Assembly (NCBI GenBank): GCA_022560555.1
Contig: JADFSZ010000109.1
Span: 1-6,032, forward strand
Reading direction: 5' to 3'
DNA: 6,032 nucleotides
DNA from: JADFSZ01 sp022560555 [NCBI: PVC group bacterium]
GTDB taxonomy: Bacteria; GCA-001730085; JADFSZ01
In this document: positions 1 to 6,032 of the stretch, one piece after another
Position numbering within the stretch: the first letter of the stretch is position 1
Layout of the letters: each line of letters starts with the position of its first letter
Position numbers and translations under genes: made by a program
Notes under the pieces: model-generated
The model's database searches: none
Told to the model about the DNA's origin: nothing
The model's input: only the letters and a program-made list of their open reading frames with translations

Positions 1-233
1 CTGAGGATGAAGCCGCTGAATAAGGTGACCTTAATTTTGACGATAAAGGCTTCGTAAGGAGCAAAAAAATATAATTGGCTGTAGAGGGTTTTTGTTGGAC
101 GAAGAATAAAAGTTAATATCGTGTCCGAACTAAAAAACGTAAAAACCGAACACACAACAAGACTACCTGTGACCCATAAAAGTCTCGATCGCAACTCTTC
201 TAAATGTTCCAAGAATGTCAGGTTTTTTGACAT
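1..233 (-). CDS. tatC: TatC, Sec-independent translocase subunit (N-terminal part, cut by window edge)
   Basis: TatC is the multi-spanning inner-membrane subunit of the twin-arginine translocase and the receptor for twin-arginine signal peptides. Seventy-seven residues are readable from the ATG at 233-231 to the window edge. Residues 7-18 read FLEHLEELRSRL, the hallmark cytoplasmic N-terminus of TatC. A first membrane segment follows at about residues 19-34, and a PYEAF motif at 59-63 matches the conserved P-x-E-x-F region before the second helix. The rest of the gene lies outside the window. It starts 25 bases after the tatA stop, so the two form an operon. I see no Shine-Dalgarno sequence before this ATG, which suggests translation depends on tatA readthrough or coupling. 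Family assignment is firm; the start is the only one that keeps the FLEHLEELR motif near the N-terminus. Confidence 0.93.
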   Translation of the reverse strand, partial: MSKNLTFLEHLEELRSRLLWVTGSLVVCSVFTFFSSDTILTFILRPTKTLYSQLYFFAPYEAFIVKIKVTLFSGFIL

Positions 234-258
234 ATTCAAGCAGGTGGAATCAAGGGTT

Positions 259-492
259 TTACTTTGATGAGTTATTGCTTTTATGATCCGGAGAGGATGG
301 TTGGGAGTCTTCAGAATCGTCTGATTCCTTCATGCCCTTTTTAAATGAATTAATGGATTTCCCAAGGGAGCGCATGAGTTCAGGAAGTTTCTTGGGGCCG
401 ACGATCAAGAGAATCACAACCAAAATAACGAGCCACTCGGCCGGACCGGGCATACCAAACATAAAAAGCTGAATGTGGGTAAGTAATGTCAT
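259..492 (-). CDS. tatA: TatA/TatE-type twin-arginine translocase pore subunit
   Basis: TatA is a small single-span membrane protein whose oligomers let folded proteins cross the inner membrane together with TatC. The 77 residues show a short periplasmic N-terminus, a transmembrane helix at about 18-32, the hinge VGPKKLPELMRSLGKS (31-46, the usual FG written VG), an amphipathic helix to about 55, and a polar Ser/Asp/Asn-rich tail, as is normal for the family. The conserved Phe/Gly hinge and K-L-P-E-L are diagnostic. Start choice is uncertain. Methionines at residues 1, 11 and 14 are all possible, none has a Shine-Dalgarno site, and most TatA proteins have only a few residues before the helix, so the ATG at 462 or 453 may be the true start. 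The -10 box at 522-527 allows any of them. TatB is less likely because the protein is short and KLPEL/SLGK fits TatA. It heads an operon with tatC. Confidence 0.92.
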   Translation of the reverse strand: MTLLTHIQLFMFGMPGPAEWLVILVVILLIVGPKKLPELMRSLGKSINSFKKGMKESDDSEDSQPSSPDHKSNNSSK

Positions 493-521
493 AAAAATCG
501 CAAACCATGATTTAAGAACAA

Positions 522-550
522 ATTATAACATAGATTCATGCGCCCATCAA
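522..550 (-). promoter_or_regulatory. Sigma70-type promoter of the tatA-tatC operon
   Basis: On the minus strand the -35 element is TTGATG (550-545, 4 of 6 to TTGACA), followed by a 17-base spacer and a perfect TATAAT -10 (527-522). A TGT just upstream forms an extended -10. The predicted start near 515 leaves a leader of about 22 bases before the ATG at 492. Matches and spacing are seen directly; promoter activity is inferred. Confidence 0.72.
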
Positions 551-563
551 CAGATGGAGTTAC

Positions 564-868
564 TCAACATATCTCAAATTCTTTGGTCATTATTCCCGCA
601 TAAGATTCCCGGTTCATAAACCTCCAAATCGCTTTTTTACTACGTTCAAGAGCTTGCTTTTGAGCTATTGTTTCCCTTCAGGAGCCGCATTTTTTACGGG
701 TTCTTGAACCGTTGGGTTCTCTTATTCGACAACCCATTCGTTAATAAGATCTTACAGAAAATTCCATATGAGTTTAGTAGGACTATTCGACTTGTATCTT
801 ATAGCAAATACAAGCCTTACAATAAATTTAACTATGGATGATAAAAAGGGATGAAAGCGTTTTCGAAC
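564..868 (-). pseudogene. Possible decayed minus-strand gene (two stops, one frameshift), unrecognised
   Basis: The 530-base gap between tatA and mraZ has no intact gene, but one minus-strand reading looks protein-like once interrupted. From 868 to 755 one frame is open (reading ...RYKSNSPTKLIWNFL). A TAA at 754-752 is followed by DLINEWVVE, then a second TAA at 724-722, then ENPTVQEPVKNAAPEG (721-674). Restoring one base in the G run at 676-674 moves into the frame ETIAQKQALERSKKAIWRF and on to a TGA at 566-564. The last two blocks have balanced amino-acid composition and an amphipathic helix-like stretch, unlike random AT-rich translation. No start codon or Shine-Dalgarno site is evident. 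I recognise no family. This may be a relic, or chance open frames in AT-rich DNA, because the individual open segments are short. Confidence 0.28.
791..814. repeat. Perfect 7-base inverted repeat (hairpin candidate)
   Basis: CTTGTAT at 791-797 and ATACAAG at 808-814 are exact reverse complements around a 10-base loop. No T-run follows on either strand, so this is not a classical terminator. It could be a protein-binding site or simply chance in AT-rich DNA. Confidence 0.25.
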
Positions 869-948
869 CTAAAGTTATTGTTGTGTTTAACTTAATCGTA
901 ATTACTTTGAAAACAATACTTTAATCGCAAATTATTATACAATAAGGC

Positions 949-977
949 TTGACAGTATCTGCGCTGAAGAGTAAACT
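949..977 (+). promoter_or_regulatory. Sigma70-type promoter of the mraZ (dcw) operon
   Basis: A perfect TTGACA -35 box (949-954) is followed by a 17-base spacer and a TAAACT -10 box (972-977, 4 of 6 to TATAAT). The expected transcription start is near 984, about 39 bases before the mraZ ATG and directly upstream of the GTGG operator boxes. No other promoter of comparable quality is visible before mraZ, and I see none between the cluster genes, so it probably drives the whole operon. Confidence 0.7.
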
Positions 978-985
978 CTGAATAT

Positions 986-1011
986 TGTGGGTTAATGTGG
1001 TAAAGAGTGGA
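986..1011 (+). promoter_or_regulatory. MraZ operator: three GTGG boxes with 10-base period
   Basis: GTGG occurs at 987-990, 997-1000 and 1007-1010, an exact 10-base spacing, within TGTGGG-ttaa-TGTGGT-aaag-AGTGGA. MraZ proteins are known to bind direct repeats of a TGGG or GTGG-like core spaced by about one helical turn in front of their own operon. The boxes lie just after the predicted start site, and the third box merges with the ribosome-binding sequence. Bound MraZ would therefore block early transcription from this promoter. Spacing is observed; autoregulation is inferred from the family. Confidence 0.75.
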
Positions 1012-1014
1012 GGG
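1009..1014 (+). promoter_or_regulatory. mraZ ribosome-binding site overlapping MraZ box 3
   Basis: GGAGGG lies 8 bases before the mraZ ATG at 1023 and fixes that start. Its first two G residues are also the end of the third GTGG operator core (1007-1010), so operator and Shine-Dalgarno sequences share bases. Confidence 0.8.
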
Positions 1015-1022
1015 ATTCTTCT

Positions 1023-1466
1023 ATGTTTTACGGTGAATATAGCCATTCTTTAGACAAAAAAAATCGTGTCATCATTCCGTCGAAAATGCGGGATGCTTTA
1101 AAAGAGCAGTATGTGGAAAAATTGTATATGACCCGCGGATTAGAGCAGTGCCTTTTTGTGTTTCCGCAAGAGGAGTGGAATAGGCAAGAAACAAAGTTTA
1201 AGAACATTTCATTTACCCATCCCGACGCCCGAAAGTTTAACCGCCTATTTTTTTCCGGAGCCTTTGAAACCGTGTTTGATATCCAAGGGCGAATTTTGAT
1301 TCCTCAGTACTTAAAAGAGTTTGCCCGGATTGATAAAGACATTATGATTATCGGAGTATCAAACCGATTTGAAATATGGTCGAGTGAAAACTGGAAATCT
1401 TTTTACAAAAATTCCATTAATTCATTTGAAGACATTGCTGAGAAACTATTGAATTTAGAAGAATAA
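1023..1466 (+). CDS. mraZ: MraZ, transcriptional regulator of the dcw cluster
   Basis: MraZ is a DNA-binding protein with two AbrB-like (SpoVT-type) half-domains that forms rings and controls the division and cell-wall cluster it heads. At 147 residues it has the usual family length. The first half starts FYGEYSHSLDKKNRVIIPSKMR and contains the D11-x3-R15 motif; the second contains FDIQGRILIP with D86-x3-R90. The two DxxxR motifs are the family signature and both are intact. The ATG is set by a strong Shine-Dalgarno site 8 bases upstream. Three GTGG boxes directly in front indicate autoregulation. It is the first gene of the operon, 28 bases ahead of the next reading frame. The C-terminal helix (about 121-147) is acidic, as is common. 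Assignment is secure. Confidence 0.96.
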   Translation: MFYGEYSHSLDKKNRVIIPSKMRDALKEQYVEKLYMTRGLEQCLFVFPQEEWNRQETKFKNISFTHPDARKFNRLFFSGAFETVFDIQGRILIPQYLKEFARIDKDIMIIGVSNRFEIWSSENWKSFYKNSINSFEDIAEKLLNLEE

Positions 1467-1494
1467 GAAATAAAACCTACAAGAAAGGAGGCCT

Positions 1495-1710
1495 ATGGAA
1501 ACAAACGCCAACAATCATCAAGTTCCTAGAAACTCGCACATTCGTGATCGGAAATTGTCCAGTATTGATACTGAAATTTCTTCGGAGCGACTAAGGAAAA
1601 TGCGCGGACTCAATAGCCGTGGTGTCGGCTTGGGATTTGACTCATCCTACTGGCGCAGGATGACGCGCGAACAATTGATTAAAACATACGGATTTAACGA
1701 ATCTCGCTAG
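1495..1710 (+). CDS. Unrecognised 71-residue basic protein between mraZ and rsmH
   Basis: I do not recognise this protein. It has 71 residues, about 14 Arg/Lys against 8 Asp/Glu, no membrane segment, no signal peptide and no cysteine. The N-terminal 20 residues are polar (Asn/His/Arg-rich). The middle, ISSERLRKMRGLNSRG (28-43), looks like a basic helix and turn. The C-terminal block YWRRMTREQLIKTYGF (52-67) has a helix-like pattern with aromatic residues. A strong AAAGGAGG (1484-1491) precedes the ATG, though with only 3 bases of spacing; no other start exists in the frame. It lies 28 bases after mraZ and ends one base before rsmH, so it is co-transcribed and probably coupled to rsmH. A nucleic-acid or ribosome-related role would suit the charge and the neighbour, but that is speculation. 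The Shine-Dalgarno site and operon spacing make it a likely real gene. Confidence 0.75.
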   Translation: METNANNHQVPRNSHIRDRKLSSIDTEISSERLRKMRGLNSRGVGLGFDSSYWRRMTREQLIKTYGFNESR

Positions 1711-1711
1711 A

Positions 1712-2617
1712 ATGGCATGTTCCGCTCGACATGACCCTGTGATGGTTTCTGAAGTAATGGATGCCTTAGGAATTGTCTCAGGCATGGTTGTTGTTGATCT
1801 GACGGTGGGGTTAGGGGGACATGCGCGTGAGATGTTTAATCATCTCGGGGGAAATGGGATTTTGGTAGGATTCGATCAAGACCATGAGGCGATAAAAATA
1901 GCAAAATCAAAATTTACCGATGAGGAAAATAAACAGATTCAATGGGTGCACGCAAATTTTCGAGATACTGAGTGTGTTCAAAACATTGTTAAAAACAAAA
2001 GGATAGACGCCTGCCTTATGGATCTGGGGGTCTCCTCCTTTCAGTTGGATGTTCCTCGGCGCGGTTTTAGTTTTCAAGGGACAGGGGTGCTTGATATGAG
2101 AATGAATTCCGAAAATTGTGTTACAGCGAAAGATATACTAGATGGTTTTAGTGAACATGATTTAGCGGATGTGTTTTATCTTTATGGACAAGAACGTAAA
2201 TCGCGCGCCATCGCGCGCTCTATAGCAAGAAAACGTCGTGCAAAGAAGGATATAACAGCTCAAGATCTTGCTCAATCGGCGTCATATGCCTATCGGAAGA
2301 TGACAAGGCGGCGTATTCATCCGGCTACGAAAATATTCCAGGCTTTACGCATTCTTGTAAATGATGAGCTGAATGCTTTAGCCGACGCGTTGCCGTTATG
2401 GTGTTCAAGCTTAAAGCCCGGCGGCCGAATGTGTGTGATCTCATATCATTCTCTTGAGGATGGCTTAGTCAAAAATGTTTTTCGAACGCTTACTAAAGAA
2501 AAAAGGCTGCGTCTTGTTTGCAAAAAGCCACTCGTACCTTCCGAGGAAGAAGTTTTTAAAAATCCGAGATCCAGAAGCGCGAAATTGAGAATTGTGGAGA
2601 GTTGTACACATGATTAG
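1712..2617 (+). CDS. rsmH: RsmH, 16S rRNA (cytosine-1402 N4)-methyltransferase
   Basis: RsmH (MraW) uses S-adenosylmethionine to methylate N4 of C1402 in the 16S rRNA decoding centre. The 301 residues match the family length. Visible motifs in order are H7-DPVMVSEV near the start, the SAM-binding motif I DLTVGLGGH (29-37), the acidic FDQD (54-57), MDLGVSS (103-109), PRRGFSF (115-121), HPATKIFQALRI (203-214), ISYHSLED (243-250) and the C-terminal NPRSRSAKLR (284-293). All are intact, so the enzyme should be active. The ATG is one base after the stop of the upstream gene and has no Shine-Dalgarno site, so translation is probably coupled. The conserved HDPVM right after the start rules out the later Met. 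The 3' end overlaps the ftsL start by 8 bases. An imperfect 10-base duplication (ATCGCGCGC at 2200 and 2210) encodes part of an Arg/Ala-rich helix. Confidence 0.96.
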   Translation: MACSARHDPVMVSEVMDALGIVSGMVVVDLTVGLGGHAREMFNHLGGNGILVGFDQDHEAIKIAKSKFTDEENKQIQWVHANFRDTECVQNIVKNKRIDACLMDLGVSSFQLDVPRRGFSFQGTGVLDMRMNSENCVTAKDILDGFSEHDLADVFYLYGQERKSRAIARSIARKRRAKKDITAQDLAQSASYAYRKMTRRRIHPATKIFQALRILVNDELNALADALPLWCSSLKPGGRMCVISYHSLEDGLVKNVFRTLTKEKRLRLVCKKPLVPSEEEVFKNPRSRSAKLRIVESCTHD

Positions 2618-3020
2618 AAAAATAATATTGATATTAGGGATATTCGGCGTCCTTTTTTTCTATACGTATGAGCAGATTCAAATCCTGCGTATGGGGTATG
2701 CTATCACTGAGAAGGAAAAAAAATTGCGTGATTTACGACAAGAAAATATGGAACTTCTGATTAAAAACTCCAGATTAAAATCTCCGAAAAGGATTGAGAC
2801 AATTTCGAAGGAAAAGCTTGGTCTTGTTGCCGCAAAAAAAGTTAAAATTGTCTATTTGTCCGCACCTAAAAAAGAGCTTAGCTCTCCCAAGTCTTCATAT
2901 GAATTATCCCTGCCAAGCCAAACCCGGATATCAAAAACCAAGCATTTCATTAGCCGCATTCTAGAGAATATTTTTTTTGGAGGGCAAAATGAAGTGGAAG
3001 CGGAAATTGTCATCCAATAA
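2610..3020 (+). CDS. ftsL: FtsL-like bitopic cell-division protein
   Basis: FtsL is a divisome scaffold with one membrane span and a periplasmic coiled coil that pairs with FtsB/DivIC and links to FtsI and FtsW. Here, 136 residues from the ATG at 2610 show a basic N-terminus (MIRK), a membrane helix at about 5-19, a heptad-like coiled coil at about 22-57, and SPKRIETISKEKLGL (58-72), which matches the typical D/S-P-x-R-I-E-x-x-A-x-x-x-L-G turn of this family. The start is set by GGAGAG (2596-2601), 8 bases upstream and inside rsmH; an upstream in-frame TTG at 2592 overlaps that site and is rejected. It overlaps rsmH by 8 bases. A Ser/Lys-rich tail of about 55 residues (82-136) extends past the usual end. 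Sequence conservation in FtsL is low, so the name rests on topology, motif and position between rsmH and ftsI. Confidence 0.85.
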   Translation: MIRKIILILGIFGVLFFYTYEQIQILRMGYAITEKEKKLRDLRQENMELLIKNSRLKSPKRIETISKEKLGLVAAKKVKIVYLSAPKKELSSPKSSYELSLPSQTRISKTKHFISRILENIFFGGQNEVEAEIVIQ

Positions 3021-3126
3021 TCGGGCGTTCCGGAACGCGCTCTTGATTTTAAGGAGTCACGGGCCCCTAAAAGCTGGGATGAAAATCGCATGGGTAAATC
3101 TAAAAAGATCAGTAAGGTTCGCTTAG
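2989..3126 (+). CDS. Candidate 45-residue small ORF bridging ftsL and ftsI
   Basis: In the frame +1 to ftsL, an ATG at 2989 is preceded by GGAGGG (2979-2984, 4 bases away) and opens 45 codons to a TAG at 3124-3126. It starts inside the last codons of ftsL and ends 36 bases inside ftsI. The peptide begins MKWKRKLSSNNRAFRN and is strongly basic, with no membrane span. ftsI itself has no Shine-Dalgarno site near its ATG, so ribosomes loaded here and ending at 3126 could re-initiate at 3090; this is a possible coupling leader rather than a functional protein. I recognise no family. It may also be chance: overlap with two coding regions constrains the DNA, and a purine-rich patch can arise from the ftsL codons. 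Confidence 0.27.
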   Translation: MKWKRKLSSNNRAFRNALLILRSHGPLKAGMKIAWVNLKRSVRFA

Positions 3127-4835
3127 CTTTTGTTGTTCTTCTGTTAAGCATGTCTTATGGTTATACGATTACACGCTTGTTTTCCCTCCAGCTGGTATCT
3201 GCCGACATACTGCAGAAGTATGCTGAAGACCAATACATCATGAGGTTTGAAATGGCTCCCAGAAGAGGGCGTGTGTGTGATGTTCGCGGGAGGGAATTGG
3301 CCGTTAGTATGAAGGTTCCTTCTGTTTTTGCCAATCCATATGAAATCGAAAATCCTGTTGAAGTAAGCGCGCGATTAAATCGTATTTTGAATGTAAATCA
3401 AGATACAATTTTAAAGCGACTCAATCGCAAGAAATATTTTGTTTGGATAAAAAGGAAAATATCAAACGAAGAATTCCAAATGATTGAAGCGGCCGAAATT
3501 CCCGGGATTCATTTTATTAAGGAAAGTAAAAGATTCTATCCTCAGGGAGAGCTGGCTTCGCATGTTCTTGGATTCGTTAATATCGATAATGTCGGACAAG
3601 AAGGCATTGAGAGGACATTTGAGAACTATCTTCTTGGTGAGGCAGGTTATCGTAAGACGCAAAAAGACGCAAAAAAGCGCGAATTGTTTTCATTTTCGGA
3701 TATCAACACATCCGTGCGCGACGGTGATACGGTCTATCTCACAATTGACACGACTATCCAGTATATTGCGGAAAGAGAAGTAGATAAAGTTTTTAAGAAA
3801 TATCATCCCGAAAGTGTATCGATTGTCGTGATGGATCCTCATACAGGTGCCATTTTAGCTTTGGCAAATCGCCCCACGTTTGATCCCAACCAATACGGAA
3901 AAGTTGATGGGGATAAAAGACGTAATCGTGTCATAACGGATATCTATGAGCCCGGCTCTACCTTTAAGGTTATTGCCGCGTCCGCGGCTTTAGAAGAAAA
4001 ATTATTTTTAAGAGATGAAAAAATATATTGCGAAAACGGGGAATATAAAATGTCCGGAAGACGCATGCCGCTGCATGATTATCATTCCTATGGCTGGCTT
4101 TCGTTTGATGATGTTATAAAGAAATCAAGCAATATTGGAACCGTGAAAATCGCGCAAAGGTTAGGGAGCGAAAAGCTCCATGAATATATCCGACGGTTTG
4201 GTTTTGGGGCTCGTACGAACATTAATCTTCCTGGAGAACAATTCGGTATTTTCCATCCCTTGAACAAATGGACTCGAAGTTCGATGTCGGCTGTGCCGAT
4301 CGGGCAAGAAATTGCCGCGACTTCATTACAAATGGTTAGAGCCTTTTCTGTCTTTGCGAATGGGGGGTGGCTCGTTGAACCTCAGATTTGCTCCCGTATT
4401 GAAAATGTCGAAGGAGTTGTGATTAAAACCATGGATATGAATAAAAGAGAGCGTATTTTATCCTCCGAGACATGTAGAGATATGAGAGAGATTCTCCAAA
4501 AAGTTGTGTCGCGTGACGGAACGGCCTATCGTGCAGCCCTCGATAATTTCTCGGCAGCCGGAAAAACAGGCACAGCGCAAAAAGCTGATCTGGTCCGGGG
4601 CGGTTATGCCGAAAATAAGTACGTGGCGTCTTTTATCGGATTTGCTCCGGCGGATGATCCCTCTATCACGATTCTTGTTACAGTGAATGAACCGCCTTGG
4701 CGGGTGCGTTTTGGCGGTACGATCGCGGCTCCTGTGTTTAAAAACGTTGCCGAGGATGTCCTAAGATATATGGAGTCCAACGGAAGGATGTATGGAAAAA
4801 ATCATAGAAAAGATAATCAGGGAAATCAAAGTTAG
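3090..4835 (+). CDS. ftsI: FtsI / PBP3-type septal peptidoglycan transpeptidase (class B PBP)
   Basis: FtsI is the division-specific D,D-transpeptidase that cross-links septal peptidoglycan with FtsW and is the target of beta-lactams. The 581 residues have a short basic cytoplasmic tail (1-11), a membrane anchor at about 12-34, the PBP dimerisation or pedestal domain (about 55-200, with APRRGRVCDVRGREL at 56-70), and a transpeptidase domain from about 240. The catalytic motifs are all present: S290-T-F-K293 (SxxK), S346-S-N348 (SxN) and K492-T-G494 (KTG). No PASTA domains follow, as in diderm FtsI. The ATG at 3090 lies 69 bases after the ftsL stop, is in the same frame as ftsL, and has no good Shine-Dalgarno site; AAGGAG at 3051-3056 is too distant, and no ATG, GTG or TTG lies between. 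The 3' end overlaps murE by 44 bases. A Spo-type or elongation PBP2 is less likely given the neighbours. Confidence 0.95.
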   Translation: MGKSKKISKVRLAFVVLLLSMSYGYTITRLFSLQLVSADILQKYAEDQYIMRFEMAPRRGRVCDVRGRELAVSMKVPSVFANPYEIENPVEVSARLNRILNVNQDTILKRLNRKKYFVWIKRKISNEEFQMIEAAEIPGIHFIKESKRFYPQGELASHVLGFVNIDNVGQEGIERTFENYLLGEAGYRKTQKDAKKRELFSFSDINTSVRDGDTVYLTIDTTIQYIAEREVDKVFKKYHPESVSIVVMDPHTGAILALANRPTFDPNQYGKVDGDKRRNRVITDIYEPGSTFKVIAASAALEEKLFLRDEKIYCENGEYKMSGRRMPLHDYHSYGWLSFDDVIKKSSNIGTVKIAQRLGSEKLHEYIRRFGFGARTNINLPGEQFGIFHPLNKWTRSSMSAVPIGQEIAATSLQMVRAFSVFANGGWLVEPQICSRIENVEGVVIKTMDMNKRERILSSETCRDMREILQKVVSRDGTAYRAALDNFSAAGKTGTAQKADLVRGGYAENKYVASFIGFAPADDPSITILVTVNEPPWRVRFGGTIAAPVFKNVAEDVLRYMESNGRMYGKNHRKDNQGNQS

Positions 4836-5184
4836 CGGTATCAGTTTGGATTCCAGGAAAATTGGCGAAAACTTCGTGTTTATCGCCATTCCGGGAACCA
4901 CAACGGATGGCCGACTTTATATCGAAGAAGCCATAGAGCGAAAAGCCTCTGTTATTGTGACGGAAGAGAAAACGTTTTTGCCGGGGAGCATCCGGCATTT
5001 TATTGTTCCGGATACTCGTTTATTCGCAAGCTTATTGGCAGAAGCGTTTTATGGATACCCTTCTCAAAAAATAAAATTGATTGGTGTTACTGGCACAAAC
5101 GGAAAGACAACCGTTGCCTATCTGGTACGCTCCTGTATCCAGAAGGCAGGCCAGAAGTGCGGCCCGGAATTGCCACTGGTTTAA
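4792..5184 (+). CDS. murE: MurE, UDP-MurNAc-tripeptide ligase (5' part only; cut by junction)
   Basis: MurE adds the third stem amino acid (meso-diaminopimelate or lysine) to UDP-MurNAc-L-Ala-D-Glu using ATP. Genuine MurE sequence runs to about residue 123: SLDSRKI (18-24) and the N-terminal substrate fold, IAIPGTTTDG (31-40), then the Mur ligase P-loop GVTGTNGKTT (98-107) and the following helix to QKCG (121-124). The family is about 480-500 residues, so roughly three quarters, including the central ATPase remainder and C-terminal amino-acid-binding domain, is missing, and the substrate cannot be predicted. Residues 125-130 and the TAA at 5182 belong to the GC-rich sequence beyond the junction. 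The ATG at 4792 is the only possible start, because an in-frame stop lies at 4762. GGAAGGA (4782-4788) sits 3 bases before it. It overlaps the ftsI end by 44 bases. Confidence 0.9.
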   Translation: MEKIIEKIIREIKVSGISLDSRKIGENFVFIAIPGTTTDGRLYIEEAIERKASVIVTEEKTFLPGSIRHFIVPDTRLFASLLAEAFYGYPSQKIKLIGVTGTNGKTTVAYLVRSCIQKAGQKCGPELPLV

Positions 5185-5838
5185 CCCAGCCAGCCGTGCC
5201 GGAAGCCGGCTCATATAGACTGTCGCCGCGCCTGTGTCGGAGCGCTCAAGCGCAAGATCGACCGCCAGGCCCAACAGGCTGATCTCCACGGGAAAACGCT
5301 GCAAAGCTGCATCGACCGTTGCAACTGCTGCGGGGTGGTAATCTGCACCACTGGCAAATTGCGTGATCACCAGTGATCTGTACAGGGACGGCGAAGGACG
5401 CTCGCTGTTACTGATCGCCTGTTCATAGTCGCCGGCAGAGGCCGCCGGGTCTCCAAGCTTCCACCAGGCGGCCACCCGGTACCGATGCGCCCCTGCATGG
5501 CTGGGATGGGCGGCAAGAAAGCGTGACAGCAGGGTTTTTCCATCGTGCCACTGGCCCGCTTCCACCCTCATCCGGCCTTCAAACCAGTCAATCAGTGCGT
5601 GACCAGGATCCAGCGACCGGACTTGATGAAAATCCAGGCTGGCGTTTTCCCACTGGCCATGGCGCCGGTACAAATCACCGCGTTTGAGGTAGAGCTCCGG
5701 GTTTGACCCCCGGTCAAGTTCGATTTGCAGGGTCAAGCTATCGATCTGGAGAAGCAGGTCAGGATGTGCCGCGAGCTGCCCGCTCATCAACAGGCCTGCC
5801 AGCAACACACAGGTGCATTTCAATCGCGGTCTTGTCAT
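5032..5838 (-). CDS. Secreted TPR-repeat protein, C-terminus replaced at junction
   Basis: This reading frame encodes a probable exported protein built of tetratricopeptide repeats, which usually mediate protein-protein contacts; no enzymatic role can be read. Residues 1-24 form a Sec signal peptide: basic MTRPRLK, hydrophobic core CVLLAGLLMSG, and a cleavage site LAA|H after residue 24. TPR-like helix pairs occur at about 47-80 (ELYLKRGDLYRRHGQWENA), 81-114 (GRMRVEAGQW...), 115-147 (RYRVAAWWKLGD...) and 150-184. Later, weaker helices reach at least residue 225. Genuine sequence covers roughly 5163-5838; from about residue 226-235 onward the frame runs antisense through murE and ends at an unrelated stop, so the last ~35 residues are artificial and the true C-terminus is unknown. 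No Shine-Dalgarno site is seen before the ATG. It lies 50 bases after another minus-strand gene. High G+C sets it apart from the dcw genes. Confidence 0.72.
   Translation of the reverse strand: MTRPRLKCTCVLLAGLLMSGQLAAHPDLLLQIDSLTLQIELDRGSNPELYLKRGDLYRRHGQWENASLDFHQVRSLDPGHALIDWFEGRMRVEAGQWHDGKTLLSRFLAAHPSHAGAHRYRVAAWWKLGDPAASAGDYEQAISNSERPSPSLYRSLVITQFASGADYHPAAVATVDAALQRFPVEISLLGLAVDLALERSDTGAATVYMSRLPARLAGLNQWQFRAALLACLLDTGAYQIGNGCLSVCASNTNQFYFLRRVSIKRFCQ
5139..5163. other. Chimeric junction between AT-rich dcw DNA and GC-rich DNA
   Basis: Left of this segment the plus strand reads as MurE; right of it the minus strand reads as a TPR protein, and base composition rises sharply. Within the segment both readings remain plausible (MurE IQKAGQKCG on plus, TPR-like RAALLACLLD on minus), so the exact break cannot be placed and the two sources may share microhomology. 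The segment contains an imperfect 12-base tandem repeat beginning CCAGAAG at 5139 and 5151. No inverted repeats, target duplication or transposase is visible, so an assembly or library chimera is the simplest explanation. Confidence 0.8.
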
Positions 5839-5888
5839 TTCGGCTGAGGAGCGGGCCTGGGGGCCGGCCCAAAAATTTGTTGCTGGGG

Positions 5889-6032
5889 TTATGGTTTCGA
5901 TACGATAATCACTGGAACATCATCGTCCGGGTCATGATTTGCACCCGAGATATACGGCGCCCCGCCGAAGATGACGCCGGTAACCGTGTACGTGACGCTG
6001 GGCACTTCGGACTGGAGGCTGTTCTTGGAGCG
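5889..6032 (-). CDS. C-terminal end of an unrecognised gene (cut by window edge)
   Basis: A minus-strand frame is open from the right edge to a TAA at 5891-5889, giving 47 residues. They include SVTYTVTGVIFGGAPY, a beta-rich stretch with alternating hydrophobic residues, and an acidic DPDDD before the terminal VIIVSKP. No family is recognisable from this fragment; a beta-sandwich extracellular domain would fit but is only a guess. It shares the high G+C and direction of the TPR gene, whose ATG lies 50 bases downstream of this stop, so the two may be one operon. No start is in the window. Confidence 0.45.
   Translation of the reverse strand, partial: RSKNSLQSEVPSVTYTVTGVIFGGAPYISGANHDPDDDVPVIIVSKP

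What the first reader, a model, noticed from the sequence alone, without database searches (positions are those of the whole stretch)
5139..5163. MurE and a secreted TPR gene are both cut at one point, with a jump in G+C
MurE ends right after its P-loop helix and a GC-rich opposite-strand TPR gene loses its C-terminus at the same place. Two unrelated genes broken at one site without transposon ends suggest that two genomes were joined during assembly or cloning. If real, it would mean loss of an essential gene copy.
Basis: partly seen in the sequence, partly recalled or inferred. Interest (0 to 1): 0.65.

Follow-up and report, generated by a model that had tools for sequence, protein, structure and literature searches.

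The report
Chimeric contig joining two bacteria
Two unrelated bacteria's DNA appears to have been stuck together by the assembly software at a short shared stretch, so the 'broken' cell-wall gene is most likely an ordinary artefact and not a biological event.

Summary
The window is one whole 6032-bp contig (C79) of a fragmented genome (222 contigs). Up to 5163 it reads as a normal division and cell-wall cluster (mraZ-rsmH-ftsL-ftsI-murE; 41% G+C over 1-5143). Bases 5144-6032 are 98.5% identical, without gaps over 889 bp, to a contig of a proteobacterial MAG (JADFKH010000142.1, isolate B46T3L11), where the TPR gene is intact at 293 aa and the murE part finds no match. Identity to that parent starts at exactly 5144, while MurE homology, at the family's spacing from the P-loop, runs to 5163. 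The two sources thus share about 20 nt at the join, as expected of a de Bruijn-graph misjoin at k of about 20-21. Nothing else of the proteobacterial contig was found in the genome. No repeats, tRNA or Rfam match mark the join. None of 337 own-genome chunks has the right half's composition. Raw reads, the decisive test, were not available.

The parts
3..239 (-). tatC, C-terminus cut by the contig's start
   Evidence: Pfam TatC 1.3e-14
259..492 (-). tatA/B-like
   Evidence: Pfam TatA_B_E 1.6e-18
1023..1466 (+). mraZ, start of the dcw cluster
   Evidence: Pfam MraZ 1.1e-40
1712..2617 (+). rsmH (mraW)
   Evidence: Pfam 5.7e-93; TIGR00006 above its cut-off
2619..3020 (+). ftsL-like (DivIC family)
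   Evidence: Pfam DivIC 3.5e-7
3090..4835 (+). ftsI-type transpeptidase
   Evidence: Pfam Transpeptidase 8.6e-80; best match among 40 other genomes is the same-phylum G001
4792..5163 (+). murE, N-terminal 124 codons only; MurE homology ends at 5163, chance stop at 5182-5184
   Evidence: Pfam Mur_ligase 3.7e-8; NCBIfam NF001126 profile 14-134 of 486, below the cut-off set for the whole protein; alignment at the P-loop
5144..5163 (.). junction: about 20 nt read as both murE and the proteobacterial TPR gene
   Evidence: identity to G041:C30 starts at 5144; MurE-like residues KAGQKCG at the family spacing, 295 of 254,716 seven-residue words of the partner's six frames score as high
5144..5838 (-). 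secreted-looking TPR protein, C-terminal ~62 of 293 aa missing
   Evidence: Pfam TPR_16 1.2e-8; intact 293-aa copy in L030
5889..6032 (-). 3' end of a second proteobacterial gene, cut by the contig's end
   Evidence: open frame ending ...VPVIIVSKP* on the minus strand; inside the 889-bp match to the partner contig

Best explanation
Contig C79 is a metagenome assembly chimera. Inferred mechanism: the window organism's murE and an unrelated proteobacterium's TPR gene share a word of about 20 nt (5144-5163). At low coverage an assembler using a short k-mer (20 or 21), or closing gaps on short overlaps, walked out of murE and into the TPR gene on its opposite strand. The resulting contig was binned by its longer left part. 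Shown: two sources, the exact start of the right source, and MurE homology to 5163. Inferred: that the join is computational, and the k-mer route.
For: Right part: 876 of 889 bp identical, no gaps, to JADFKH010000142.1 / G041:C30, starting at 5144, with the TPR gene whole there. In the window's own genome only C79 matches that 7570-bp contig; only 5144-6032 of the 1241-bp query 4792-6032 matches G041. MurE register to 5163. Composition: right half LLR -0.247; 0 of 337 own chunks are that low (minimum 0.024); 164 chunks of the partner genome average -0.163, maximum 0.051. In G001, the one other genome of the phylum held, murE follows ftsI in a 479-codon open frame. A sediment study with a site T3L11, to which the partner's isolate name points, assembled with SPAdes at k 21-127 (passages read). 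Chance 20-mer collisions between a 1.66-Mb genome and a 10^9-bp metagenome are estimated at about 3000 (random-sequence arithmetic).
Against: No reads were examined. The murE DNA past 5163 is unknown, so the overlap's right end is inferred from protein similarity. The window genome's own assembler and study are unknown. The GUNC authors call misassemblies relatively rare compared with mis-binning (passages read). Contigs masked as N in the store could hide other matches (7 of 44 own contigs fetched were masked).
Confidence: 0.9

Rival explanations
1. The chimera was made in the tube (ligation during library preparation, template switching in PCR or whole-genome amplification) and then assembled faithfully.
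For: It gives the same two-source contig; template switching also uses short homology (recalled). No call here separates it from an assembler error.
Against: A shared stretch of about 20 nt is long for ligation and close to common short k-mers; a contig normally needs several independent molecules with the same join (general knowledge).
Confidence: 0.07
2. A real genomic junction: a proteobacterial fragment recombined into the murE of this organism by short homology.
For: The DNA is contiguous in the contig. The partner copy is 98.5% and not 100% identical (13 differences), though a sister strain in the sample explains that too.
Against: It would cut an essential gene and leave a TPR gene without its end. 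No repeats near the join, no tRNA, no Rfam match. Near-identity to another phylum's MAG with foreign composition would need a very recent transfer. No such arrangement in G001.
Confidence: 0.02
3. Not exclusive of the above: the rest of this murE lies on contig C109 of the same genome and the gene is merely split over two contigs.
For: C109 holds a murE lacking its start, followed by murF-mraY-murD, the usual order, at similar G+C (0.43 against 0.41).
Against: Both pieces cover MurE profile positions 94-134 of NF001126 but share only 49% of 39 residues there, so as they stand they are two different murE genes.
Confidence: 0.05

Closest known systems
Chimeric contigs from metagenome misassembly (as described in the GUNC paper, PMC8201837, passages read)
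   Same: fragments of different organisms joined in one contig; abrupt switch of source and composition
   Different: here the join can be placed to about 20 nt and a near-identical donor contig is identified
MurE in a dcw cluster (UDP-N-acetylmuramyl-tripeptide synthetase, TIGR01085)
   Same: order ftsI-murE, start and P-loop as in relatives
   Different: only the first 124 residues are present

Membership tests
Metagenome assembly chimera | two parts from different genomes, each with its own source | tested here: met
   right part in G041, left query part not; left part's FtsI closest to same-phylum G001
Metagenome assembly chimera | short exact stretch shared by both parents at the join | tested here: met
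   5144-5163: exact in the right parent, MurE-like in the left; the left parent's own DNA past 5163 is not seen, so the match is at protein level on that side
Metagenome assembly chimera | no proper read support across the join, coverage step | not testable with these tools
   raw reads not available
Real insertion or recombination (mobile element) | terminal repeats, tRNA site, or integrase/transposase at the join | tested here: not met
   no repeats of 12 nt or more in 4900-5400, no tRNA, no transposase or integrase family among the eight window proteins scanned
Real insertion or recombination (mobile element) | same arrangement in an independent genome | tested here: not met
   G041 holds only the right part; G001's murE is a 479-codon frame; only these two genomes are informative

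The most novel reading that the evidence does not exclude
The junction is real DNA: a recent illegitimate recombination between phyla through about 20 nt of chance homology, in a cell that keeps a second, different murE (the one on C109) for its wall.
Probability: 0.02. Interest if true: 0.45.

Novelty: not a real feature. Interest (0 to 1): 0.06.

Why it matters
It matters only as quality control: the 60% G+C tail of C79 (5164-6032) should be removed from this genome, one of two held for its phylum. Neither a lost murE nor transfer of a TPR gene should be read from it.

Tried and rejected
Split gene over C79 and C109: rejected because the two murE pieces overlap in the profile and differ. C109 as a plainly native contig: unresolved. 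11 other genomes score better than same-phylum G001 with its MraY (40 of 41 genomes searched matched, own genome included), and its murE-side end is AT-rich (0.344 G+C in 250 nt). Its 65-aa end ORF has no Pfam match at E up to 1. C50's G+C-rich end as another piece of the same proteobacterium: no match in G041, an empty answer without a positive control. Junction string in viral contigs: 0 matches, uninformative. The first composition run was spoilt by N-masked contigs and was replaced, after dropping the 7 masked ones of 44 own stretches. In one search the own and partner chunks were scored by a model trained on the same contigs; the window was not in the training. MurE rows: 16 used; among the ftsI loci L011-L029, L016 and L022 gave no P-loop hit and L021 and L025 looked like other Mur ligases; these four were left out, and L032 repeats L011. 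Paper searches: the isolate name found 0 papers; a search on chimeric contigs gave 9 papers, of which I read passages of one, GUNC; a trench search listed 8 of 109, of which I read passages of one.

Full report
What is there. The window is the whole of contig C79 (6032 bp) of a genome of 1,658,262 bases in 222 contigs, listed as 91.54% complete and 1.98% contaminated; that it is a MAG is inferred from this make-up. From left to right it holds tatC (cut by the contig start) and tatA/B on the minus strand, then mraZ, rsmH, an ftsL-like gene, ftsI and the start of murE on the plus strand. After 5163 it holds a minus-strand secreted-looking TPR gene and the 3' end of a further minus-strand gene, cut by the contig end. 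'Secreted' rests on the look of its N-terminus; no signal-peptide program was run. G+C is 0.41 for 1-5143 and 0.60 for 5164-6032.

The right half has its own source. A scan of genome contigs with the TPR protein gave one locus, JADFKH010000142.1, 'Proteobacteria bacterium isolate B46T3L11' (1 of 34 pattern-matched stretches). The DNA match is 876 of 889 bp without gaps, window 5144-6032. In that record the TPR gene is 293 aa long and intact; the window copy keeps about 231 aa, with 5 synonymous and 3 non-synonymous codon differences over 5164-5838. The partner genome matches only this part of the query 4792-6032. The window's genome shows nothing else of the partner's 7570-bp contig, with the caveat that some of its short contigs are masked as N (7 of 44 fetched).

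The left half fits the genome. Its FtsI finds G001, the only other genome of the phylum held, as the best of 40 other genomes searched (502 against 451 bits for the next). A tetranucleotide log-ratio trained on 37 unmasked contigs or contig stretches of the window's genome (C79 not among them) and 15 of the partner gives +0.204 for the left and -0.247 for the right. Own chunks of 869 nt average +0.161, SD 0.049, minimum +0.024, 0 of 337 at or below the right half. Partner chunks average -0.163, SD 0.069, maximum +0.051, n = 164. The chunks are from the training contigs; the window is not.

The join. The proteobacterial parent is identical to the window from 5144 and differs at once to the left. 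MurE homology runs further right: the residues KAGQKCG before 5164 sit at the same distance from the P-loop as 'AAGRKTG' and the like in relatives, and NCBIfam's MurE model aligns through the last of the 124 residues given. A profile of 16 MurE proteins scores these seven residues as high as only 295 of 254,716 seven-residue words from six frames of the partner's contigs (0.0012), though slightly below all 16 family members, which were scored with themselves in the profile; the first base of the K codon (5143) lies outside the shared stretch. So about 20 nt (5144-5163) appear to serve both genes. The core 19-mer occurs once in the window's genome.

Why an assembler error. A stretch of 20-21 shared bases is the size of the smallest k-mers used in common assemblers (recalled). 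A Challenger Deep study with a site T3L11 states SPAdes with k 21, 33, 55, 77, 99 and 127 (PMC8938466, passages read). That the partner MAG comes from that study is inferred from its isolate name, since JADFKH does not occur in the main text; the study and assembler of the window's genome are unknown, so I cannot say whether the two were assembled independently. Simple arithmetic gives about 3000 chance 20-mer collisions between a 1.66-Mb genome and a 10^9-bp metagenome, so such words are plentiful. The GUNC authors name misassembly as one of the two principal computational errors in MAGs, and the rarer one (PMC8201837, passages read).

No sign of a mobile element. No direct or inverted repeat of 12 nt or more was found in 4900-5400, no tRNA in the window, no Rfam match in the window at gathering scores, and no transposase or integrase family among the eight window proteins scanned.

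Is murE lost? Nothing says so. The genome is fragmentary. A second, different murE without its start lies on C109 before murF-mraY-murD. The two pieces overlap at MurE profile positions 94-134, with 49% identity over 39 residues, so they are not two halves of one gene as they stand. G001 has a murE behind ftsI, and murF-mraY-murD on another contig (my reading of the translations). C109 may be a contaminant or chimeric at its AT-rich end; this was not settled.

Verdict. An ordinary assembly chimera, located to about 20 nt with a near-identical donor identified. Reads would settle the remaining doubt.

Noticed in passing
L031 (G000:C109), about 4600-4771: The end of C109 before its murE piece is AT-rich (0.344 G+C in the last 250 nt) and carries an opposite-strand ORF without a Pfam match: perhaps a second chimeric end, also just before a murE P-loop.
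   Followed up: partly
L051 (G000:C50) 7477-7726; L096 (G000:C120) 1-250: Ends with G+C of 0.556 and 0.544 against 0.42 and 0.44 for their contigs; four further ends among the 37 stretches examined are AT-rich. Possible further chimeric ends, or ordinary variation.
   Followed up: partly
L032 (G001:C31) 1-513 (-) and 6550-7125 (+): Both ends of the same-phylum contig that carries mraZ to murE hold near-identical ORFs pointing outwards that look like a transposon-type gene (my reading of the translations), which may explain why that contig stops there.
   Followed up: no
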